In this document: positions 2,478 through 45,809 of the stretch, piece after piece
How the letters are laid out: each line of letters starts with the position of its first letter
Position numbering within the stretch: position 1 is the stretch's first letter
Source: a virus
Virus record (IMG/VR): IMGVR_UViG_3300014497_000282
Span: 1-45,809 of that record
Reading direction: 5' to 3' (one strand)
Length of the DNA: 45,809 nt
Position numbers and translations under genes: made by a program
Notes under the pieces: model-generated
The model's database searches: none
What the model saw: the letters and a program-made list of their open reading frames with translations, nothing else
What the model was told of the DNA's origin: nothing

Positions 2478-3026
2478 ATGACTATTACTCCGCCAGTAAA
2501 GCTCATACTTTCGATGCTTGCCGCGCTGCATGAAAATCTCAACATCGATCCGCAGACTGCGCGGTTCGTTAAAGCAGCGGTTGCGAGCGACAATACTTGG
2601 GCGCTTAGCTGGGAGTTTCCGGAGTTCTTCGGAGAGCAGGTTGAGCCTTTTCCGACAGTAGTGACAGAAGTTTCGAACTATCTTCACATGTGGACGTGTA
2701 TCGAAAAAAGTCTCAAATTTCTACCCATCCAAGAGCGCATCGAAGTTGCCCAATCCGCCAAAGGTCCAACCACCTTTCCAGGCTTTGATAGCGAAAAAGA
2801 AAGCGAGCATTTCAGTTCAGCGCATTTTATTATTACCCACATGCGCCGATTCACGAATTTCAACGCCATCGAACTGGACGCTCACTATCCAACTCTGCCG
2901 CGAATTGAATCAATGTATGCCAATTTCGCAATGCTTCAAATGCAGTGTAACGTTCGGTGCCTAACCAAGGCAGAACTTATTGCAATATTTGATGTGACCA
3001 AAGATACGGGAATTGTCAGGGCCTAG
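2478..3026 (+). CDS. YfbU domain protein
   Basis: 182 residues. The pattern TPPVKLILSMLAALHEN at the start, then VVTEVSNYLHMWTCIEKSL, FPGFDSEKESEHFSSAHFI, RRFTNFNAIELDAHYPTLPR and the closing CLTKAELIAIFD follow the YfbU family order (N-terminal LIL helix, 'ev.dile.y..l..s', 'F.GFD...E......a.f....'). E. coli YfbU is about 164 residues, so this is full length. Its biochemical function is not established. The surrounding DNA is visibly richer in A+T than the structural genes, which fits recent transfer as prophage cargo. A toxin role is sometimes suggested for YfbU, but nothing here proves it. Confidence 0.65.
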   Translation: MTITPPVKLILSMLAALHENLNIDPQTARFVKAAVASDNTWALSWEFPEFFGEQVEPFPTVVTEVSNYLHMWTCIEKSLKFLPIQERIEVAQSAKGPTTFPGFDSEKESEHFSSAHFIITHMRRFTNFNAIELDAHYPTLPRIESMYANFAMLQMQCNVRCLTKAELIAIFDVTKDTGIVRA

Positions 3027-7158: not shown

Positions 7159-7698
7159 TCAGGGCGCGAGCAGCGCGCGGTCGCTGCGCACGATGCCCAG
7201 CAGCAGGGTTACTTCGGCGTCTCGCCGCGCGAGAGCACGTCGAGCTTCTGCAAGTAGCTCTCCACCCTCTGCAGCAGCGGCTGCGATGAGCTCGGATCGA
7301 TCTGCGACACGCTCGCAGGCAACGGGGTCGCTACGGGCCGCGGCGCGATCACGGGCGGCGGCGGTGGCGAACTGGAGGCGCACGCGCTCAGCGTGAGCAG
7401 CATCGCCAGCGCGGCCAGCTTCCAGGGTGCGGATGGTTTGCTCGAAGGCATGGACGGTCTCCTGCTGCTGGGCAGCGTGGGTGAGTTGCAGGGTGGCGAC
7501 GCGCTCGGACTCGCGCAGCGCGGCGCGATTGCGGTCGTTGGTCTCGGTGGCGCGCGCGAGGCGCTCGGCGGCCAGCTCTTCACCACGGTTGGCCAGGCGC
7601 ACGGTCTGCAGGCCCAGCGCGGCCAGCAGACCGGCCACCAGCACGGCGACGACGATCGGCCGCCAGTTCACCAGCAGGAAGCGACCGGCGGCGATCAC
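7159..7698 (-). CDS. Rz: Inner-membrane spanin (Rz-like)
   Basis: 179 residues from a GTG at 7698 that overlaps the endolysin stop (GTGA), which fixes the start. A single N-terminal membrane anchor (WRPIVVAVLVAGLLAALGL) is followed by a long Ala/Glu/Arg-rich coiled coil to the end. This is the i-spanin layout: anchored in the inner membrane and spanning the periplasm to meet the outer-membrane lipoprotein during lysis. A second frame inside it encodes that lipoprotein (7209-7451). Confidence 0.8.
   Translation of the reverse strand: MIAAGRFLLVNWRPIVVAVLVAGLLAALGLQTVRLANRGEELAAERLARATETNDRNRAALRESERVATLQLTHAAQQQETVHAFEQTIRTLEAGRAGDAAHAERVRLQFATAAARDRAAARSDPVACERVADRSELIAAAAAEGGELLAEARRALARRDAEVTLLLGIVRSDRALLAP
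7209..7451 (-). CDS. Rz1: Outer-membrane spanin lipoprotein (Rz1-like), embedded in Rz
   Basis: 80 residues from the ATG at 7451, read in a different frame and lying wholly inside the Rz-like gene. A signal peptide (WKLAALAMLLTLSA) ends in a lipobox LSAC with Cys24, followed by SSPPPPPVIAPRP, the proline-rich stretch typical of Rz1 proteins. After lipidation it would sit in the outer membrane and fuse membranes with Rz at lysis. At about 57 mature residues it is within the usual range. The fully embedded arrangement is known from lambda. Confidence 0.8.
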   Translation of the reverse strand: MPSSKPSAPWKLAALAMLLTLSACASSSPPPPPVIAPRPVATPLPASVSQIDPSSSQPLLQRVESYLQKLDVLSRGETPK

Positions 7699-8342
7699 GC
7701 TGCCACCTGCAGGGCGCGGCGAACCTTCACGAGCATGTCCTCGACCTCGCGCAGGCCGAACGTGCCGCCGTTGACGACCTTGCGGACCTTCACGGTGTCG
7801 GCCAGGTACGCGTCGGGCACCTTGCCCTCCCACCAGTCGAACGCGAACTCGAGGGCGAAATGCGGCTGCTCGGCGAGCTCAGGGAGCACAGTCAGATCCT
7901 GGCCGCTGCGCTTGCCCTGCCAGAGGTAGCCCTCGTAGAAGGTCAGCATGATCAAGCCACGGCCCGGGTAGCGCGCGCCGTCGCCAGCGCCTTCGGGCCG
8001 GTTGCCGCCGCGGCCGCCGTAGCAGGCCTCGAAAAACTTCTGCTCGTTAAATGCCAGCTCCTCGGCGCGCGGCACCAGGGAGCGCCACCGGCTACCGGGC
8101 GGCGATGCGTTGCCCAGCTCCCGGATCCGCGCGGCGCTGTAGTTGCCGCTCTCCTTCAGCTTCTGCAGGCCCTGGCTTTCGACCAGGACGTTGGCCAGGA
8201 ACTGCGCCAGGTCGGCGTCGCCCTTGCTGAAGAGGTCCATCTTCGGCGTGTGGGCGAACACACCCGACCACGTCGCAACCTGCGCCGGCTTGATGCCGCA
8301 TAGGGTCAGGATGCGCGCCCAGTCGTCCTTCGTGCGCGTCAT
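7695..8342 (-). CDS. Endolysin, glycoside hydrolase family 19 type
   Basis: 215 residues from the ATG at 8342, which overlaps the holin stop. FLANVLVESQGLQKLKESGN carries the probable catalytic Glu of the GH19 fold (helix before the NYSA loop). The YGGRGGN and RYPGRGLIMLTFYEGY segments match the GH19 substrate-cleft motifs seen in phage lysozymes that cut the glycan strand. No signal peptide is visible, so release depends on the holin encoded just upstream. Translation is coupled on both sides (ATGA with the holin, GTGA with Rz). Confidence 0.85.
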   Translation of the reverse strand: MTRTKDDWARILTLCGIKPAQVATWSGVFAHTPKMDLFSKGDADLAQFLANVLVESQGLQKLKESGNYSAARIRELGNASPPGSRWRSLVPRAEELAFNEQKFFEACYGGRGGNRPEGAGDGARYPGRGLIMLTFYEGYLWQGKRSGQDLTVLPELAEQPHFALEFAFDWWEGKVPDAYLADTVKVRKVVNGGTFGLREVEDMLVKVRRALQVAA

Positions 8343-8782
8343 GCGTCGCTCCTTGGCGGCAGGCGGCCGAAGCTGCTGCCGATCGTTCGGTTGTAGATGT
8401 ACTCGCAGGCCTTCGCGCCGCCGAAGCTGATGGCAGGCACGAAGAACCCGACCAGCAAGCCCGGCATGCCGAAGTGCGCCGCGCTGAAGAAGCCCATCAG
8501 GCCGGCCAGCCACGACCCGCCCATGTGCGCCGCGATGAGCAGCGGCAGGTTTCGGATGGGCGGCACGATGGCGTCGGGCGGCGCGTCGTTGATCTGTGCG
8601 CTGATGCGGATGAGCAGTGCGGTGCCGCCGCTCAGCGTGGTCAGCACCAGGACGAGCAGCCACTCCAGGCCGGTGATGGTCTCCACCGCCTGGCCGAAGG
8701 TGAGCTGCGCCGCGATGACCGATGGCGGCCAGATGGCCACCGCGCAGGCCTTGAGGCCGGCAACCGTTCGCACTCTGATCAC
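8339..8782 (-). CDS. Holin (LydA-like)
   Basis: 147 residues from a GTG at 8782 that overlaps the upstream stop (GTGA). There are several hydrophobic segments: VAIWPPSVIAAQLTFG, WLLVLVLTTLSGGTALLI, LPLLIAAHMGGSWLAGLMGF and PGLLVGFFVPAISFGG, giving three to four membrane passes. The position directly before the endolysin and the predicted topology support a LydA-type holin that forms the membrane lesion releasing the endolysin. Assignment is by topology and position rather than by a sequence signature. Confidence 0.7.
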   Translation of the reverse strand: MIRVRTVAGLKACAVAIWPPSVIAAQLTFGQAVETITGLEWLLVLVLTTLSGGTALLIRISAQINDAPPDAIVPPIRNLPLLIAAHMGGSWLAGLMGFFSAAHFGMPGLLVGFFVPAISFGGAKACEYIYNRTIGSSFGRLPPRSDA

Positions 8783-9286: not shown

Positions 9287-9673
9287 TCAGCGTTTCGCCG
9301 CGGCCGTGAAGAGCGCATCGAGCGCAACGGCATCGAGGCCCAGTGCAGCGCCGAGCAGCGCGACCAGCTCCGAGCCGCGCTCGACGGTGGCCGAGTAATC
9401 CCATTCGATCTGCGCGGCCTCCTTGTGGTCTGCGGGCAGCGAGGCAATGGCTGCACCTACCGCGTTCAGTTTGCGCGCAGCAAGGAGCTCCAGGCGGGCC
9501 TGGCGCATCGTCACGATGGCCGGCACGACTTCGACGACTGGCGGCGGCGCGCCGGGCGTGTTGCCCTCCCCCAGCCAAGCTAGGTAGTCCGCATAGTCCA
9601 CGTTGAGCGGATCGAGCGGGATCATGGCGGCGTCTTCACGGCGCTCAATATGGGTCACGTGATCGATGTACAT
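9287..9673 (-). CDS. Fibre-associated protein / tail fibre chaperone candidate
   Basis: 128 residues from the ATG at 9673, overlapping the stop of the fibre gene upstream (TGATG). A second in-frame Met at about residue 17 (MIPLDPLNVDYADY) follows a GAGAGG-free region, so the first start is preferred for coupling. The C-terminal half, VTMRQARLELLAARKLNAVG ... EWDYSATVERGSELV, is a helical conserved segment often encoded beside phage tail fibres. It probably assists fibre folding or attachment; this is inferred from position. Confidence 0.6.
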   Translation of the reverse strand: MYIDHVTHIERREDAAMIPLDPLNVDYADYLAWLGEGNTPGAPPPVVEVVPAIVTMRQARLELLAARKLNAVGAAIASLPADHKEAAQIEWDYSATVERGSELVALLGAALGLDAVALDALFTAAAKR

Positions 9674-28331: not shown

Positions 28332-28407
28332 TGGAGCATCCCGAGGGAATCGAACCCTGCTCTGCGCAGCTTGGAAGGCTGGCGACGCGGCCCGCGCGCT
28401 GGGATGC
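28332..28407 (-). tRNA. tRNA-Gly(TCC), phage-borne
   Basis: 76 bases on the minus strand. The acceptor GCATCCC (28401-28407) pairs with GGGATGC (28336-28342), followed by T and an encoded CCA. The anticodon loop reads CTTCCAA, giving anticodon TCC for glycine GGA codons. The T arm has AGGGTTCGATTCCCT. Single mismatches at the bottom of the anticodon stem and at one end of the T stem suggest some decay, as is usual for phage tRNAs. It lies just after the terminator of the Rex-like pair. Confidence 0.75.
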
Positions 28408-28412
28408 GGAAA

Positions 28413-28446
28413 GGAAAAAGCCGCCGAGGCGTGAACCTGGGCGGCT
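28413..28446 (-). terminator. Intrinsic terminator of the Rex-like operon
   Basis: On the minus strand AGCCGCC and GGCGGCT flank a 14-base loop and are followed by TTTTTCC. It is 28 bases past the stop of the membrane gene and 6 bases before the tRNA. It isolates the two-gene unit from the downstream late genes. Confidence 0.7.
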
Positions 28447-28473
28447 GTGCAGACGGCGTCGCGTCGAGCGCGG

Positions 28474-29070
28474 CTACTTCAATGGGATGGTGCGATCGGG
28501 GCTCGGCGGTTGGTGCAACCGATCACCCAAATAGTAGAGGCCCCAAAACGTCGCAACGATCAATTGCCAACACAAGAACACCGTCACGAAGACATACAAC
28601 CCCGTGAAATATGCATGTGACGAAGGCGAGAAAATCTCCTTGAGCGACGGCGCAATCGCTCCACCGACGATGGTCAAGAAGATGATCCCCAGGCTCTCTG
28701 CGGTCAGGAACGCAAACATCGAACACAGGAAGCGGCGTCGCGTCAGATCGATCGGAAAACTATGACCATGGACTTGCACATTGAGCCGAGGAGCCGGCGC
28801 CGGCATTACAAAGTCTATGTCCGTCTTATTGAATGTGGCAATTGCCGCAAGGGCGGCAATATAGAAGCCAGGCAAAATTTGCACAAACCCTAGAATTCGG
28901 CTTGAGAGCCCAGAATTGGAAAATATATCAATCTTCGAACGGGAGTCAAGCAATAAAAAGGCAGCCATACTCAAAACCGTCAACACGAGCGGCACATACC
29001 AATCTATCTTTCTCTTGAAAGCATGACGTATGCGCAGGTAATTAAAGGGCCCAAGAAGATGCTCAATCAT
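28474..29070 (-). CDS. Four-TM membrane protein, RexB-like architecture
   Basis: 198 residues, with four hydrophobic segments: about 24-42 (WYVPLVLTVLSMAAFLLL), 57-80 (GFVQILPGFYIAALAAIATF), 112-136 (FAFLTAESLGIIFLTIVGG) and 152-178 (YVFVTVFLCWQLIVATFWGL). A Glu-Ser-Leu-Gly turn within TM3 parallels the Glu-Leu-Gly of lambda RexB TM3 and TM2 has a similar IAAL run; these are comparisons from memory. RexB is 144 residues; this one is longer in the TM2-TM3 loop. It overlaps the preceding soluble gene by 8 bases. The DNA is clearly richer in A+T than its neighbours. It may be a channel-forming exclusion effector. Confidence 0.55.
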   Translation of the reverse strand: MIEHLLGPFNYLRIRHAFKRKIDWYVPLVLTVLSMAAFLLLDSRSKIDIFSNSGLSSRILGFVQILPGFYIAALAAIATFNKTDIDFVMPAPAPRLNVQVHGHSFPIDLTRRRFLCSMFAFLTAESLGIIFLTIVGGAIAPSLKEIFSPSSHAYFTGLYVFVTVFLCWQLIVATFWGLYYLGDRLHQPPSPDRTIPLK

Positions 29071-30022
29071 CGTCAGCCAGCCTTCTTATGTGTTCCAACA
29101 GTTCCGGATGAAAGGCGTCATAAGACGATTTCAGCGGAACACCGAACCTCTTTAACAGCTCTTTTCTAATATATCTCTCTTCAAATCCAGAATCCGAATC
29201 CCATGCGACTCGTTGCTCGGCGCCGGTCGGGCTTTTGAATTTAATTTTCGCCTTGGAAAAGTCGTCCTTCTTGTTCCTCAATATTCGAGTCAACTGCTGC
29301 AGCCGATCCACAACCTTGTCGTATTGCGGATTAACTTTCAAGCGAACAGTACTAGCCGTCTCAATAAAGTAGCGTTCTTCATCGAACCCCTCCTCCACCT
29401 CTCCCTCCGAAATGAGCTCGATGTCGCTGAACGTGCCTCGGTTCAAATCGGCCGCAAAGTCAGCCGATACAACTCCGCGAATTTCAAAATCGTGATGGAT
29501 TTTGAACTGAAGAAGTTTTCCCTGTGCATCAGTGGCGCCATTTGGCGCGTTCTGCAAGAAAATTTGAGGATTTTTCTTACGAGTTCTTCGCAGGAGTTGA
29601 CGAAGAACTACGGCGATGCGACTAGCCCCAAGCCCTTGTGCGCTTTCTAAATACATCTTCGCCGGCATGAGCGGATCAGCAGCAAACCTAATAACTGCAT
29701 GAGCTGAGAACGCGTGACCCTCGTCGACATTCTTATTGATCTCACGGAGCGCTCGGCTCTGGTGATTCCGGAAAATCGGGTCTGCGTGTTCCTTATCCGA
29801 TCGATAAAAGAGAAACGTAGCTTCTAACTCGCTCAATCGACAATCGGATATTCCGAAAACTTGCTTCGCACCTTTGCGATCAAGTTGCCGCTGTTGTGCG
29901 GAAAGCTGACCAATTAGAACGCATGCGTCACGTGCGGTTAACGGAGTTGGACTGGGATGACCGACCGACGAAACGACCATCTTTAGGTCATAGAAGCAAA
30001 TGGTCCGCTCGTTCTTCTTCAC
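29063..30022 (-). CDS. Cytosolic partner of the membrane gene, RexA/KwaB-like candidate
   Basis: 319 residues from the GTG at 30022, chosen because GGAG lies five bases upstream and a promoter ends just before it; the frame is open to 30112, but those residues fall in the promoter. It opens MKKNERTICFYDLKM and contains ATFLFYRSDKEH, DEGHAFSAHAVIRFAADPLM, GLGASRIAVVLRQLLRR, HDFEIRGVVSADFAADL and DFSKAKIKFKSPTGAEQRVA. The order of short beta and alpha elements, with a late 'kakikfks' strand, resembles RexA or KwaB-type proteins (RexA 279 residues, KwaB about 315). No catalytic site is visible. Together with the next gene it forms a soluble-plus-membrane pair. Confidence 0.5.
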   Translation of the reverse strand: MKKNERTICFYDLKMVVSSVGHPSPTPLTARDACVLIGQLSAQQRQLDRKGAKQVFGISDCRLSELEATFLFYRSDKEHADPIFRNHQSRALREINKNVDEGHAFSAHAVIRFAADPLMPAKMYLESAQGLGASRIAVVLRQLLRRTRKKNPQIFLQNAPNGATDAQGKLLQFKIHHDFEIRGVVSADFAADLNRGTFSDIELISEGEVEEGFDEERYFIETASTVRLKVNPQYDKVVDRLQQLTRILRNKKDDFSKAKIKFKSPTGAEQRVAWDSDSGFEERYIRKELLKRFGVPLKSSYDAFHPELLEHIRRLADDD

Positions 30023-30046
30023 GCCGTCTCCGCTTACAAAGCGGAC

Positions 30047-30075
30047 AGTATCTTGGACGTTGCACTTTGTTGCAA
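30047..30075 (-). promoter_or_regulatory. Promoter for the Rex-like pair
   Basis: TTGCAA (30070-30075), a 17-base spacer and GATACT (30047-30052) on the minus strand, each matching four of six consensus positions. It would start transcription about 20 bases before the GTG at 30022. Moderate score, but the spacing is ideal and the location is just where a moron promoter is needed. Confidence 0.5.
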
Positions 30076-30242: not shown

Positions 30243-30995
30243 CTATGCGTGGTGCTCCCCTCGCGACATGAAGCCGCGGATCTTCTTCATTGCGTCGTGC
30301 CGCGCTTCGATCATTCCCCGCTCCATCAACCGGCCATCCTGCGTATATCGATCGTCGAAGGGCAGCGGGCGCTCGCCGAGCCCTTGGCAAAGCGTGCATA
30401 CCCGGCACGATCCGCGCCCGCCGACCGACACCGGGTCGAGCATCGTGCCCAAGCACTTGGGGCACCGGTGATCGAGCCACCAGGCCAGCAGCGCCAGCGC
30501 CTTCGCCTCGGGGTCGCGGATGCTCCGCTGCGTCGCCCAAGCTGCGAGCGCATGCTGCGCCAGCGGCAGCGTGCGCATGCGGCCGATGATTCGCACGCGC
30601 TCCTTCTCGTACCACTCGGCGGCCTGGGCCCGGCCCATGGCGTTCCGCTGCTTCGCCGTCGTGTGCACCTGCCGGGGCCGACCGACCGCATCCAGCACCG
30701 GCTTGCCCTCGTCGTCGGTCATGTCGACCTGCATCGGCATCGTCGAGATCAGCGCCAGGATGTCGTGCTCGCGCGGCGCGCGGGGCTGCTCTGACGCATC
30801 CCACTCGGCTTCAACCGCCAGCAGCGCGCGGCCCAGCACCAGCGACGCGGTGCCCTTGGTCCAGCCGGCCGCCGTGATCAGGTCGAGCGTGTTGAGCGGC
30901 AGCGTGCTGTCGCGCTGCGGCGAAAGGTTCGAGCTGCTGACGGCGTTGGCCAGTCGCTCGTCGATTGCGGGTTTGGTGGTGGTGTCCGTGCTCAT
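30243..30995 (-). CDS. Zinc-finger phage protein, Q-like antiterminator candidate
   Basis: 250 residues from the ATG at 30995. A helical N-terminal two thirds is followed by a compact Cys cluster near residue 175-205: CPKC, then GSCRVCTLCQGLGE, i.e. CxxC...CxxCxxCxGxG, as in Q antitermination proteins of the phage 82 type. It is the last gene of the leftward early operon, upstream of packaging and structural genes on the same strand, exactly where a late-gene antiterminator would sit. Direct similarity to a named Q protein is not established by eye. Confidence 0.55.
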   Translation of the reverse strand: MSTDTTTKPAIDERLANAVSSSNLSPQRDSTLPLNTLDLITAAGWTKGTASLVLGRALLAVEAEWDASEQPRAPREHDILALISTMPMQVDMTDDEGKPVLDAVGRPRQVHTTAKQRNAMGRAQAAEWYEKERVRIIGRMRTLPLAQHALAAWATQRSIRDPEAKALALLAWWLDHRCPKCLGTMLDPVSVGGRGSCRVCTLCQGLGERPLPFDDRYTQDGRLMERGMIEARHDAMKKIRGFMSRGEHHA

Positions 30996-31276
30996 TGAAG
31001 CGTGTCTTCCATTGCACGGTCTCGAGCAGCGAGCGTGCCGCGCACGCTGTTGGCGACGCCCTGGATCAGGTCTTTCGTCCCGAGCACCAGCGGCACATAG
31101 TCCATTCGACGGTTCTCGGCGTAGGCCGCGCGGTTCGAGTCCAGCATCCTGGCCAGAGGCTCGACGTGCAGCGCGTTCTGGCTTTGACTCCAAAGCAGAA
31201 CCCACAGGTCGGGGCGAAATTCGACGTGCCCGGCAGCGAGCGCCGGCGTGATATCGGGGGTGTTCACCATGGTCAT
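30992..31276 (-). CDS. Small hypothetical phage protein
   Basis: 94 residues from the ATG at 31276. The segment VEFRPDLWVLLWSQSQNALH then MDYVPLVLGTKDLIQGVANS suggests a small alpha/beta protein. It overlaps both neighbours by four bases, between the primase-helicase and the Q-like gene. Function unknown. Confidence 0.6.
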   Translation of the reverse strand: MTMVNTPDITPALAAGHVEFRPDLWVLLWSQSQNALHVEPLARMLDSNRAAYAENRRMDYVPLVLGTKDLIQGVANSVRGTLAARDRAMEDTLQ

Positions 31277-35780: not shown

Positions 35781-36053
35781 CTAAGCCTCTGCCCTGGCTT
35801 CGACCTGCGCGTCGCCGAGAGGTGCGCCCTTTGCGCCGATCAATTCGGGCCAGTGCTTCTTCCAATCAGCGCGCAGATTCCAACGTCGAACCGCGCGGTT
35901 GGACTCGCGCTCTATCGACACCGCAATGTCCGTCGCGCACGGCTTGAGGCCGTACATCACGTTCTGAAGGTGCCCGAGGGTGGTGCCGCAGCGCTCAGCG
36001 AAGGCGATGCGGTCTGGCTTCGGCATGGCCGATAGAAAGGCTTTGAGTTCCAT
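35781..36053 (-). CDS. cro: Cro-like repressor, YdaS type helix-turn-helix
   Basis: 90 residues, MELKAFLSAMPKPDRIAFAE, with a helix-turn-helix in RIAFAERCGTTLGHLQNVMY (residues 15-34), and the YdaS/Cro ending CATDIAVSIERESNRAVRRW. GAGG lies five bases upstream of the ATG. It is divergent from cI and is the first gene of the leftward early operon. Its promoter and two operator-like sites lie in the 76 bases between the genes. Confidence 0.8.
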   Translation of the reverse strand: MELKAFLSAMPKPDRIAFAERCGTTLGHLQNVMYGLKPCATDIAVSIERESNRAVRRWNLRADWKKHWPELIGAKGAPLGDAQVEARAEA

Positions 36054-36062
36054 GGTGGCCTC

Positions 36063-36091
36063 ATTACATCAAATGGTGAACGAATGGTCAA
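36063..36091 (-). promoter_or_regulatory. Early promoter for cro (leftward)
   Basis: On the minus strand TTGACC (36086-36091), a 17-base spacer and TGTAAT (36063-36068). Two operator-like 14-mers lie over the spacer/-10 side and just upstream of the -35. A near-copy of the same arrangement lies at 37209-37237. Confidence 0.75.
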
Positions 36092-36104
36092 CATCATTCG
36101 ATGT
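36066..36104. promoter_or_regulatory. CI/Cro operator pair, cro side
   Basis: Two 14-bp sites: ACATCAAATGGTGA at 36066-36079 (imperfect inverted repeat) and ACATCATTCGATGT at 36091-36104 (perfect ACATC-4-GATGT). Their starts are 25 bp apart. They bracket the -35 and -10 of the cro promoter, so a repressor bound here would block cro. The sites also lie 26-64 bp upstream of the cI ATG. Confidence 0.7.
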
Positions 36105-36129
36105 ACGTCCAGTGGTGCACTCAGCCACC

Positions 36130-36834
36130 ATGACCCTCAAACTCGTCCGCATCGCCCGTCTCAAGCGCTTCGCCAAGGAGAAGCAGTTGGAGGGCCCCGT
36201 GGAATTGGGAAAGGCGATCGGCCGCAAGACCAACCAAACCAGCGATCTACTAAACGGTCGCGCCTCTTTCGGCGAGAAGATCGCGCGCAGCATCGAGGAA
36301 TTCGCTGCGCTGCCGCCTGGTTGGCTGGACTCGGACGAAGACGGCGACATCAGCCGCTTAACCGCAAAGCAGACTAAGGCTCAAGAGAAGGGGTTGCGGC
36401 GTACCGATGGCGCCATCGAGGTGCCGTTGCTGTCAGCCGCGGCGTCCATGGGGCCCGGCGCCGAAGTTCACGAAGAGGTTGTTGTCGGTCGACTCACGCT
36501 CTCGCCTCGATGGGTCACACGCACCATGTCCCCTGGCACCAAGCCCGAGCAACTCCGATTCATACACGGCTACGGCGACTCGATGGAGCCGACCTTCATG
36601 GACGGCGACGTGCTGCTGGTCGACACCGGTGTGCAGGCCATCAGAGTCGACGGCATCTATGTGCTGCAAGCCAACGACCGCCTTTACGTAAAGCGCGTTC
36701 GCCAACGCATCGACGGCGGATTCGAGATCAGCAGCGACAACGCAACTGTGAAGACGGTCGACGTACTCAACGGCACCAGCGCGGTCGAGGTACTGGGCCG
36801 CGTGGTGTGGGTCTGGAACGGTAAGAAGCTGTGA
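36130..36834 (+). CDS. cI: CI repressor, S24 peptidase family
   Basis: 234 residues from the ATG at 36130; no clear ribosome-binding site precedes it, so translation may be leaderless. Residues 22-57 form the DNA-binding domain (ELGKAIGRKTNQTSDLLNGR). The linker has a possible autocleavage bond in LSAAASMGPG (about 101-110). The S24 domain has Ser151 in GYGDSMEPTF and Lys188 in RLYVKRV, the Ser-Lys dyad. RecA-stimulated self-cleavage at DNA damage would induce the phage. Divergent from cro. Confidence 0.9.
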   Translation: MTLKLVRIARLKRFAKEKQLEGPVELGKAIGRKTNQTSDLLNGRASFGEKIARSIEEFAALPPGWLDSDEDGDISRLTAKQTKAQEKGLRRTDGAIEVPLLSAAASMGPGAEVHEEVVVGRLTLSPRWVTRTMSPGTKPEQLRFIHGYGDSMEPTFMDGDVLLVDTGVQAIRVDGIYVLQANDRLYVKRVRQRIDGGFEISSDNATVKTVDVLNGTSAVEVLGRVVWVWNGKKL

Positions 36835-44085: not shown

Positions 44086-44456
44086 TCTTGCCGCATCGCC
44101 GGGCACGCAGGCGTGGCTTCTCGGCCACAGCACTTTTGTGACCTAGGACACAAACTAGAAACATTTACGAGTGCAACAAAATGAAATAGTTCCTACTATC
44201 CATTGCTTGTTCACTGCTCCCGTTTCGAGCGCGCCGCCGATGACTTCCACCTCGTTTCAGATGCATGTCCCGTGCCGGGGCGGGTGCCAGAGGAATGGGC
44301 TGCATCCTTGAAACGGCGGACGGTGTTCTCCGTTCCGGGCGGCAGCCCGGCGCGGAAGGCCCATCCCACCCCCTCCCCTCCACCTCTCGCCATGGCGGGC
44401 GGCGGAGCACCGCCCGCCAGGAACACAGGTCAGCGACCGGTCCCACGCATGCCGCC
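44086..44456. other. Host intergenic region
   Basis: About 370 bases without a gene on either strand. It probably contains the promoter of the downstream EAL-domain gene; a G+C-poor stretch (44140-44220) is the best place, but I could not pick -35/-10 elements with confidence. Confidence 0.5.
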
Positions 44457-45809
44457 ATGCCCCAGCCAGACAGCCATGCGATGAGCGCATCCCCGATCAA
44501 ATCCGCCGCGCCCGCGCAGCCGGCCGATGCATGGGTCGACTCGATGTCGGAGCCCTGCCGGTGCGTCTTCGTCTTCATCGGCAATGCGCCGCACCTGGCG
44601 CAGGCCTTCAGCGCCGGCCTGGCCGCGGCGGTCGGGCGGGAAGTCGGGCGGCGGCTGATGGCGCTCGCCAGCGCGACGGCCGGCCCGGAGGTGATCGAGA
44701 TCCGCGACGACTGCTTCCTGCTCTGGTCGCCCGGCGACGCGGCGGGCGGGGGCTACGGCGGATCGCCGAGCGTGAGCGAGAGCATCGAGCACCTGCTGTC
44801 GGCGCTGTCCGCCGAGCCCGTGCGATTCGACGGGCTGGTGGCCCTGCCCGAGCTGCATGCCGGCTGGATCGAGGTCTCGGACCCGCGCACCCTCGATGCA
44901 ACCGAGATCGACCTGATCCTGTGGGCCGCGCAGCAGTCGCCTTCGCTCGACGAGGTGCGCGCCGAGGATTGGCGCGCCGGCTATCGCGCCGACATGGCGG
45001 TCGCGGTGCGGGTGTGGGAGGCCGCGCGCGCCGGGCGGCTGCAGACCCGCTGGCAGCCTGTGGTGGACGCCTACGCCGGCGCCGCCACGCTCTACCGCGA
45101 GGGCTGCGTGCAGGTGGCGCCGGCGCCGGAGCACCATGCGCCGCTGGCGTCCGGCAGTTTCATGCCCAGCCTGGAGCGGCTGCGGCTGACACGGGCCTTC
45201 GATCGCCGCGTCGCCCACCAGGTGCTCGACGCGCTGCGCCAGCAGCCCGGCGCGAACATGGGCCTGAACCTGTCGGCGCACAGCGCGCGGCTCGACCATT
45301 GGTGGGCCCTGTTCCTGGACGCCCTCGCGCGCGAGCCGCTGCTCGCCCGACGGCTGGTGGTGGAGATCAATTGCGCGCGGGCCCAGTTGCAGGACGCCGA
45401 GGCCGTGCGTGATTTCTGCCGCTGCCTGGCGGCCTATGGCTGCCGGATCGCCATGGACGCCTTCGGCGCGGGATCGGCCGGCCTGACCTTCGTGCAGGCG
45501 TGCAAGCCCGAGATCGTCAAGCTGGAGGCGGCCTTCGTGCGGCGCGCCGGCGAGAACCAGTTCGGCTTCGAGAGCCTCAAGGACATGCTGGGGCTTTGCG
45601 CACGCCTGGCCCCGCGGACCGTGGTGGCCGGCATCGACCGCGAGGCCGACCTGCACGTGGCGATGCGCGCAGGCGCGCAGTGGCTGCAGGGCTGCTACCT
45701 TGGCGGCGGCCAGGCCCTCGCCCGCCACCGTGGGCCGGCCCGGCGCGGTCTCGCTTCGATGCGAGGCGAGGCGGCCCCGTCGGACCGACCGAGGATCCAT
45801 CCCCTCTAA
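44457..45809 (+). CDS. Degenerate EAL-domain protein (host)
   Basis: 450 residues from the ATG at 44457, ending at the window edge. Residues about 200-430 follow the EAL fold: RLQTRWQPVVDAY (the EAL Glu replaced), MGLNLSA (Asn kept), VVEIN (Glu kept), AMDAFGAGSAG (DDFG lacks the second Asp), IVKLEAAFVR (Lys kept) and VVAGIDRE (EGxE lost). It therefore probably binds but does not cleave c-di-GMP. The N-terminal 170 residues are unassigned. It lies outside the prophage. Confidence 0.75.
   Translation: MPQPDSHAMSASPIKSAAPAQPADAWVDSMSEPCRCVFVFIGNAPHLAQAFSAGLAAAVGREVGRRLMALASATAGPEVIEIRDDCFLLWSPGDAAGGGYGGSPSVSESIEHLLSALSAEPVRFDGLVALPELHAGWIEVSDPRTLDATEIDLILWAAQQSPSLDEVRAEDWRAGYRADMAVAVRVWEAARAGRLQTRWQPVVDAYAGAATLYREGCVQVAPAPEHHAPLASGSFMPSLERLRLTRAFDRRVAHQVLDALRQQPGANMGLNLSAHSARLDHWWALFLDALAREPLLARRLVVEINCARAQLQDAEAVRDFCRCLAAYGCRIAMDAFGAGSAGLTFVQACKPEIVKLEAAFVRRAGENQFGFESLKDMLGLCARLAPRTVVAGIDREADLHVAMRAGAQWLQGCYLGGGQALARHRGPARRGLASMRGEAAPSDRPRIHPL

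What the first reader, a model, noticed from the sequence alone, without database searches (positions are those of the whole stretch)
28413..30075. Self-contained two-gene moron with a soluble protein and a four-TM membrane protein, resembling RexA/RexB or Kiwa
A promoter (TTGCAA-17-GATACT), two overlapping genes (319 and 198 residues) and an intrinsic terminator stand together between the Q-like gene and a phage tRNA. The DNA is visibly A+T-richer than the rest. The gene order (soluble first, then a membrane protein with four hydrophobic segments) is that of lambda rexA-rexB; TM3 of the membrane protein contains an Ser-Leu-Gly turn after Glu, as RexB has Glu-Leu-Gly. The soluble partner shows the beta/alpha order also seen in RexA and KwaB (DUF4868). 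This would be an abortive-infection module in a phage family where it has not been described, and its location is unlike that of lambda rexAB, which follows cI.
Basis: partly seen in the sequence, partly recalled or inferred. Interest (0 to 1): 0.8.

Follow-up and report, generated by a model that had tools for sequence, protein, structure and literature searches.

The report
Prophage RexAB-type phage-defence gene pair
A virus dormant in a bacterial genome carries a two-gene module, a likely DNA-sensing protein and a four-helix membrane protein, that belongs to a family of which one member, in a Pseudomonas prophage, has been shown to stop other phages by damaging the cell membrane.

Summary
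At 28474-30022 (minus strand) lie a 319-codon soluble gene and a 198-codon four-helix membrane gene, overlapping by 8 nt, A+T-rich (GC 0.50 against 0.64), with a strong terminator beside tRNA-Gly. The proposed promoter is weak.

Both match PADLOC's unvalidated candidate PDC-M53 (4.9e-79, 2.7e-69). They are homologous to PP_5643/PP_5644 of Pseudomonas putida prophage P1 (22%, 1e-15; 44%, 1e-41), published in January 2026 as the RexAB-type system RexABpp; I identified that locus by synteny, mass and 6 of 7 published residues. The soluble protein's model best matches RdgC and Iml3/CENP-N, published structural relatives of lambda RexA, though with modest scores. So "RexAB-like" is supported, "Kiwa-like" is not, and "not described" is overtaken.

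Pfam and PADLOC RexA/RexB models do not match, and common origin of the membrane protein with lambda RexB is undecided. The soluble gene accompanies the membrane gene in 157 of 161 records. One relative's equivalent site carries other defence candidates. Verdict: new member of a known kind; my searches found no paper linking PDC-M53 with RexABpp.

The parts
29063..30022 (-). Gene A: soluble protein, 319 codons, GTG start; PDC-M53A / RexApp homologue, predicted RexA/RdgC-type DNA-binding sensor
   Evidence: PADLOC PDC-M53A 4.9e-79; 22% identity to the PP_5643 locus protein over 332 columns, E 1e-15; AF2 pLDDT 94.8; Foldseek RdgC 2e-4
28474..29070 (-). Gene B: four-helix membrane protein, 198 aa; PDC-M53B / RexBpp homologue, predicted membrane-damaging effector
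   Evidence: PADLOC PDC-M53B 2.7e-69; 44% identity to the PP_5644 locus protein, E 1e-41; AF2 pLDDT 94.5, four long helices
28415..28446 (-). Intrinsic terminator of the pair (stem-loop then T run)
   Evidence: -19.2 kcal/mol, z -3.15
30047..30075 (-). Promoter-like TTGCAA-17-GATACT (weak, 8 of 12 consensus positions)
   Evidence: present; not listed by the consensus scan
30028..30031 (-). GGAG, Shine-Dalgarno-like, 5 nt before the GTG of gene A
   Evidence: read directly
28332..28407 (-). tRNA-Gly (TCC), next to the module; neighbour, not part of it
   Evidence: ARAGORN
30243..30995 (-).
   Evidence: relatives L226, L227; no Pfam hit (longer ORF 30243-31205), no PHROG or PADLOC hit

Best explanation
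The pair is a prophage-carried RexAB-type abortive-infection module of the family that PADLOC calls PDC-M53 and Rosendahl et al. call RexABpp. Gene A makes a dimeric, non-specific DNA-binding protein of the RexA/RdgC type that senses an invading phage's DNA or replication intermediates. Once triggered it switches on gene B, a four-helix inner-membrane protein that self-associates and makes the membrane leaky. Growth of the infected cell stops and the infection is aborted, protecting the other lysogens. Shown here by computation: the pair, its homology to RexABpp, the four helices of B; supported but not proven: the fold of A. Shown by others for the P. putida homologue: defence needing both genes, non-specific DNA binding by A, self-association of both, B-dependent growth arrest and dye permeability when A is overproduced. 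Inferred for this phage: expression in the lysogen, the trigger, contact between A and B, and protection itself.
For: Both proteins hit the PDC-M53 profiles, and the P. putida pair hits the same profiles at 8e-157 and 3e-72. L121 is the P. putida P1 locus: repressor, HIRAN gene, small gene, A, B, then two genes in the hicB-hicA place, in the order the paper gives (the hic names of those two ORFs are read by eye), computed mass 37.47 kDa against 37.5 published, and 6 of 7 published RexBpp residues at offset 0 against at most 2 at the 12 other offsets tried (T103 is Asp in L121). BLASTP of the window proteins to it, E-values for a single comparison: B 44%, 1e-41; A 22% over 332 columns, 1e-15. 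Model of A: RdgC is the only PDB match with E <= 0.001 (2e-4, probability 0.99); the second look is led by Iml3 4it3 (Z 6.6, rmsd 3.0, 109 aligned), with RdgC 2owl_A at Z 5.5 and CENP-N 6eqt_B at 4.8; PMC11077077 reports RdgC, Iml3 and Chl4 as relatives of the lambda RexA crystal structure (passages). The position of the published inactivating Y181H is Tyr in the window protein and in 79 of 91 aligned sequences. A is present with B in 157 of 161 records, with gaps from -35 to 100 nt in 157 of 162 B hits. The equivalent site of relative L226 carries PDC-S33 and putAbiC genes.
Against: No experiment on this pair. The match of A to RexApp is distant (22%). The RdgC match has a TM-score of only 0.28 and rmsd 13.3 over 329 columns; Z-scores of 5-7 are in the range the tool warns may mean only a common arrangement, and RexA (8TWQ) is not among the rows shown. 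Neither protein reaches the Pfam or PADLOC RexA/RexB models even at E 5, although those models find lambda's own proteins. For RexABpp itself no A-B contact was seen in two-hybrid tests, no depolarisation was detected, and expressing A from another site did not restore defence (PMC12894663). Three of the four published substitution sites (F35, L55, S145) are not the same residue in the window protein (S34, S56, I146).
Confidence: 0.82

Rival explanations
1. Roles reversed, as reported for mycobacteriophage Butters gp30/gp31: the soluble protein is the antiviral effector and the membrane protein only anchors or restrains it.
For: Such a Rex-like system is described in the discussion of PMC12894663. 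A DNA-binding protein could block phage DNA metabolism directly.
Against: In the closest tested homologue both genes were needed, and of 38 escape mutants of A overproduction 30 had lost the prophage, 7 had mutated B and 1 had lost the A cassette. B is the better conserved partner (mean column identity 34% against 27%).
Confidence: 0.08
2. A member or close relative of Kiwa (KwaA/KwaB): the membrane protein senses the injected phage and the soluble protein acts on its DNA.
For: One four-helix membrane gene beside one soluble gene of about 310 residues.
Against: No KwaB (PF16162) or Kiwa profile match at E 5; profile comparison of A with 7 KwaB proteins gives probability 0.28% and of B with 6 upstream-gene proteins 0.18%; the partner gene precedes KwaB in 7 of 7 loci read (11 of the 18 fetched were dropped because no plus-strand ORF over 280 aa spanned the midpoint).
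Confidence: 0.02
3. A lysogeny- or recombination-control pair: A is an RdgC-like DNA clamp that adjusts the lysis-lysogeny switch or recombination, and B is a membrane partner, with no defence role.
For: RdgC is the best structural match; lambda RexA affects the lambda switch (abstract of PMC11077077).
Against: Deleting RexABpp did not change its repressor's promoter activity. The module occurs in different sites and elements, including non-tailed Vibrio elements and a plasmid, and lies about 6 kb from the window's repressor-like gene.
Confidence: 0.05
4. A lysis-timing accessory (holin/antiholin-like membrane protein with a regulator), suggested by its place beside holin genes in SfII and F1055.
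For: SfII: between Q and holin S; F1055: directly before two genes annotated as holins.
Against: Opposite strand to the lysis genes in SfII; in P. putida it lies in the repressor operon; in the window the spanin-like gene is at 7159-7833, 20 kb away.
Confidence: 0.03

Closest known systems
RexABpp (PP_5643/PP_5644), P. putida prophage P1, Rosendahl et al. 2026 (PMC12894663)
   Same: Homologous proteins, same order and near-zero spacing, four-helix membrane partner, prophage cargo; same PADLOC family
   Different: Best PDC-M53A model is PDLC04694 against PDLC04696 here; lies in the repressor operon, whereas the window pair stands alone between a conserved phage gene and a tRNA
PADLOC phage defence candidate PDC-M53 (A and B)
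   Same: Both profiles match over nearly their full length
   Different: No mechanism attached in the PADLOC hit table; no paper in the library names it
Lambda RexA/RexB
   Same: Soluble-then-membrane order; best structural matches are those published for RexA; four-helix membrane protein (RexB's helices by eye); a similar TM2 stretch G..IA.L.A..TF
   Different: No match to Pfam or PADLOC RexA/RexB models; B is 198 aa against 144; not next to cI
Shigella phage SfII genes SfII_50/SfII_49 (hypothetical proteins)
   Same: Same pair, PDC-M53A 2e-32 and PDC-M53B 3e-54, beside a Q-like antitermination gene
   Different: Annotated as hypothetical; 20% and 43% identity to the window proteins
Kiwa (KwaA/KwaB)
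   Same: Membrane plus soluble partner of similar size
   Different: Opposite gene order, no profile match

Membership tests
PDC-M53 (PADLOC) | Soluble protein matches a PDC-M53A profile | tested here: met
   E 4.9e-79, residues 32-346 against profile 2-318 of 320
PDC-M53 (PADLOC) | Membrane protein matches the PDC-M53B profile | tested here: met
   E 2.7e-69, 2-188 against 3-187 of 188
PDC-M53 (PADLOC) | A directly upstream of B on the same strand | tested here: met
   8-nt overlap in the window; in relatives 157 of 162 B hits have A at -35 to 100 nt
RexABpp-type | Homology of both proteins to PP_5643/PP_5644 | tested here: met
   BLASTP 1e-41 (B) and 1e-15 (A) to L121
RexABpp-type | Membrane partner with four transmembrane helices | tested here: met
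   AF2 model; 71 of 90 aligned members score four segments
RexABpp-type | Both genes needed for defence; B is the membrane-damaging effector | not testable with these tools
   Published for P. putida only
Lambda RexAB (strict) | Match to Pfam/PADLOC RexA and RexB models | tested here: not met
   No hit at E 5; lambda's own proteins hit
Lambda RexAB (strict) | RexA-type fold related to RdgC and Iml3/Chl4 | tested here: inconclusive
   Leaning to met: RdgC E 2e-4, Iml3 Z 6.6, RdgC Z 5.5, CENP-N 6eqt_B Z 4.8; but TM-score 0.28, modest Z, and RexA 8TWQ itself not listed
Lambda RexAB (strict) | Sequence homology to RexA/RexB by profile comparison | tested here: inconclusive
   A against RexA: 6 of 60 shuffled profiles score as high; B against RexB: 5 of 60. 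RexB against KwaA-type proteins scores higher (20.0) than RexB against B (18.5). TM2 14-mer of lambda RexB beats 911 null scores narrowly; a 20-column version does not stand out
Lambda RexAB (strict) | Genes follow cI | tested here: not met
   Repressor-like S24 gene at 35980-36834, plus strand
Kiwa | KwaB (PF16162) / Kiwa profiles | tested here: not met
   No hit at E 5
Kiwa | KwaA (membrane) gene precedes KwaB | tested here: not met
   Order is reversed here; in 7 of 7 Kiwa loci read (of 18 fetched) a gene of 184-226 codons precedes KwaB, 6 of them with 3 or more hydrophobic segments and 1 with 2
Kiwa | KwaB fold | tested here: inconclusive
   No such row among those shown; absence is not proof

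The most novel reading that the evidence does not exclude
PDC-M53/RexABpp and lambda RexAB are one ancient family in both partners: the soluble proteins share the RdgC/Iml3-type DNA-clamp fold and the membrane proteins share a TM2 core G..IA.L.A..TF that would be the gate or oligomer interface. If so, the rII exclusion system of lambda is a small outlier of a widespread defence family carried by tailed phages, corticovirus-like elements and plasmids.
Probability: 0.45. Interest if true: 0.55.

Novelty: new member of a known kind. Interest (0 to 1): 0.38.

Why it matters
It gives a tested name and mechanism (RexABpp) to a PADLOC candidate family (PDC-M53), so the members seen in Shigella phage SfII, in non-tailed Vibrio elements and on a Sulfitobacter plasmid become predicted membrane-damaging exclusion systems. 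It also supplies 153 loci found by sequence search (73 from genomes, 80 of 126 from viral contigs; near-identical copies not removed) and conserved residues (P27, G68, R112, the TM2 core, Y180) for asking how a RexB-type protein breaches the membrane. How the lambda system is triggered is still unknown, according to the discussion of PMC12894663.

Tried and rejected
Kiwa: rejected. RexA/RexB sequence homology by profile comparison: first with shallow lambda-type profiles, then with 25 RexA and 20 RexB unique sequences; not above shuffled controls (6 and 5 of 60 reach the observed score), and a control pair, RexB against KwaA-type proteins, scored higher (20.0 against 18.5). Rank test of profiles against ORFs: RexB at best rank 10 of 6838 and RexA at best rank 40 of 6051; the RexA and RexB profiles each rank PDC-M53 members first and second, at bit scores of 4.8 to 10.6 that mean little. 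TM2 motif: 7 of 7 positions in 20 of 20 RexB and 108 of 136 family B proteins, and in 1 of 456 other multi-TM ORFs, which turned out to be a family member fetched later (L187). The motif was chosen after seeing both sequences. In the version chosen from B alone (14 columns), lambda RexB and 12 other RexB score 1.4 against a null maximum of 0.7 without L187, but 7 RexB score -0.1, which 3 of 911 null scores reach, and a reversed RexB reaches 0.9; with 20 columns 46 of 912 null scores (one of them L187) reach the RexB median. Fold search of B in the PDB: no match at E <= 0.001; bundle matches up to Z 9.7 (NINJ1) are below the about 13 that the tool asks of helical bundles. PDB sequence search: nothing for A, chance-level rows for B. 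Kiwa and RexA folds do not appear among the structural rows shown. First loci scans with protein A alone found nothing, as did tblastn of A in phages; protein B and its alignment were the productive queries. Prevalence: 1 of 399 genomes of the order of G001 has PDC-M53B, and that one was the seed; 0 of 14 control genomes. The SfII version is in 9 of 5426 E. coli genomes. Four of 161 records have B without a detected A: in two (L062, L105) the match starts at a contig edge; in L026 and L027 no A-like ORF stands upstream.

Papers: PMC12894663, parts 1-4 of 9, the discussion and one term search; PMC11077077, abstract, outline and passages; PMC12988326, passages only; all others seen only in search listings. 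The statement that no paper was found linking PDC-M53 with RexABpp rests (12 of 52 papers listed), in a library without bioRxiv preprints. That PDCs are putative candidates from a guilt-by-embedding screen is from passages of PMC12988326.

Full report
WHAT IS THERE. The window is a virus record of 45,809 bases, by its genes an integrated prophage: integrase, S24 repressor-like gene, primase-helicase and terminase, portal, head and tail genes, and an EAL-domain gene at the right edge, probably host. On the minus strand, between a phage gene at 30243-30995 and tRNA-Gly at 28332-28407, lie two overlapping genes. The soluble one runs from the GTG at 30022 to 29063 (319 codons); the PADLOC profile and 4 of 6 first-aligned relatives place the start there, and a GGAG stands 5 nt upstream. 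The membrane one runs from 29070 to 28474 (198 codons) and overlaps it by 8 nt. A stem-loop of -19.2 kcal/mol with a T run follows. GC is 0.50 against 0.64 for the window. The proposed promoter is present but weak, and the 'Q-like' label of the upstream gene has no profile support.

WHAT IT IS. Pfam has nothing for either protein at E 5 and NCBIfam only hits far below the cut-off. PHROGs gives families of unknown function. PADLOC gives one clear answer for each: PDC-M53A (4.9e-79) and PDC-M53B (2.7e-69), an unvalidated candidate system. Searching phage records with protein B found the same two-gene unit in Shigella phage SfII (between Q and holin, opposite strand), Salmonella phage F1055, Moraxella phage Mcat23 and two Vibrio elements classed in Vinavirales with genes noted as PM2-type capsid protein; protein A found a Sulfitobacter plasmid copy next to a type ISP restriction gene. 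Alignment-based scans gave 73 genome loci and kept 80 of 126 viral loci. In 157 of 161 records (the window, its copy L001, and 159 others; near-identical records not removed) A is present with B. Gaps from A stop to the assigned B start range from -14 to 48 nt in the 150 records where both genes were full-length enough to measure.

THE TESTED HOMOLOGUE. A paper of January 2026 (PMC12894663; parts 1-4 of 9 and the discussion read) shows that PP_5643/PP_5644 of P. putida prophage P1 protect against phages and that both genes are needed. The soluble protein binds DNA non-specifically; overproducing it arrests growth only if the membrane protein is present, with dye leakage in a subpopulation but no depolarisation signal. 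The authors named the system RexABpp on the basis of an HHpred match to lambda RexA, a DALI match to RexA (8TWQ, Z 8.8) and gene order; their HHpred found no homologue for the membrane protein. One of my loci, L121, is this locus: neighbours occur in the published order, the mass agrees (37.47 against 37.5 kDa), and 6 of 7 published residues of the membrane protein fall at the right positions while none of 12 other offsets gives more than 2; the exception is T103, where L121 has Asp. L121's proteins match PDC-M53A and PDC-M53B at 8e-157 and 3e-72. The window proteins align to them over nearly their whole length at 22% (1e-15) and 44% (1e-41). So PDC-M53 includes RexABpp, and the window carries a member of that family. 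The main text of the paper mentions neither PADLOC nor PDC, and no paper in the library names PDC-M53.

FOLD. AlphaFold2 models are confident (A pLDDT 94.8, B 94.5). For A, E. coli RdgC is the only PDB match at E <= 0.001 (2e-4, probability 0.99), but with TM-score 0.28 and rmsd 13.3 over 329 columns, as would fit domains set at a different angle. The second look lists Iml3 (4it3, Z 6.6, rmsd 3.0, 109 aligned), RdgC (2owl_A, 5.5) and CENP-N (6eqt_B, 4.8); chains N of three kinetochore entries at 5.0-5.7 are, by recall of the naming, Chl4/CENP-N too. RdgC, Iml3 and Chl4 are the relatives that the lambda RexA crystal-structure paper reports (PMC11077077, passages). The Z values are modest and RexA itself is not listed, so this supports the fold without proving it. 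For B, no PDB match is informative.

WHAT IT IS NOT. Kiwa fails on profiles, gene order and profile comparison. Strict lambda RexA/RexB membership fails on profiles and location. Profile comparison with lambda-type RexA and RexB is inconclusive (6 and 5 of 60 shuffles reach the observed score), and RexB scored higher against KwaA-type proteins than against B. One lead is left: the most conserved 14 columns of B (PGFYIAALAAIATF) score lambda RexB's TM2 above 911 null scores, narrowly (1.4 against 0.7). Seven of 20 RexB score lower (-0.1), a reversed RexB reaches 0.9, and a 20-column version does not stand out (46 of 912 null scores reach the RexB median).

SITE. A scan that reaches close relatives only found two other viral contigs with the upstream gene. 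In L226 the next 3 kb carry an ORF with a putative AbiC domain (PF16872) and, on the other strand, a RelA/SpoT-domain gene that matches PADLOC PDC-S33 at 3e-119; the window's 87-aa gene follows at 9606. In L227 only ORFs of 150 aa or less and a tRNA-Pro intervene before an HNH match at 8472. This looks like a cargo slot with exchangeable defence content; three examples are few.

HOW IT MOST LIKELY WORKS. By homology: A, a DNA-binding protein, reports phage DNA metabolism and activates B, which self-associates and breaches the inner membrane, halting growth. For this pair everything beyond sequence and models is inference. The best-conserved residues of B (P27, G68 and R112 in 90 of 90; L181 in 89 of 90; Tyr at the Y180 column in 79 of 91) lie in the TM2 core and near helix ends, where an effector mechanism could be tested.

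VERDICT. It is a new member of a known kind, recently explained through a homologue.

Noticed in passing
L226 6739-9605 (relative of the window site): The equivalent site in another prophage carries a putAbiC-domain ORF and a RelA/SpoT-domain gene matching PADLOC candidate PDC-S33 (3e-119), suggesting an exchangeable defence slot after the upstream gene.
   Followed up: partly
window 2478-3026 (+), in the other A+T-rich patch of the window: Second low-GC patch holding a YfbU-domain protein (PF03887, 2.1e-9; PHROG 6084 unknown), possibly another cargo gene; no PADLOC hit.
   Followed up: partly
L003, L004 (Vibrio 10N.286.54.C7_PE001 and 10N.286.52.C10_PE001): Elements with PM2-type capsid genes carry the same pair near one end (beside the integrase gene in L003), so the module also rides on non-tailed viruses.
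   Followed up: partly
L007 4794-6330: Plasmid copy of the pair directly downstream of a large type ISP restriction-modification gene.
   Followed up: partly
L026 7959-8534 and L027 7989-8534: Membrane protein B without the soluble partner; in L027 the ORF just upstream looks, by eye, like a different membrane protein.
   Followed up: partly
lambda RexB TM2 (L161 826-1260) and window B residues 67-80: Shared stretch G..IA.L.A..TF in the second transmembrane helix of lambda RexB and PDC-M53B; statistically marginal in the version chosen from B alone.
   Followed up: partly
window 44265-45809 (+): EAL-domain protein at the right edge, probably host DNA beyond the prophage end.
   Followed up: no
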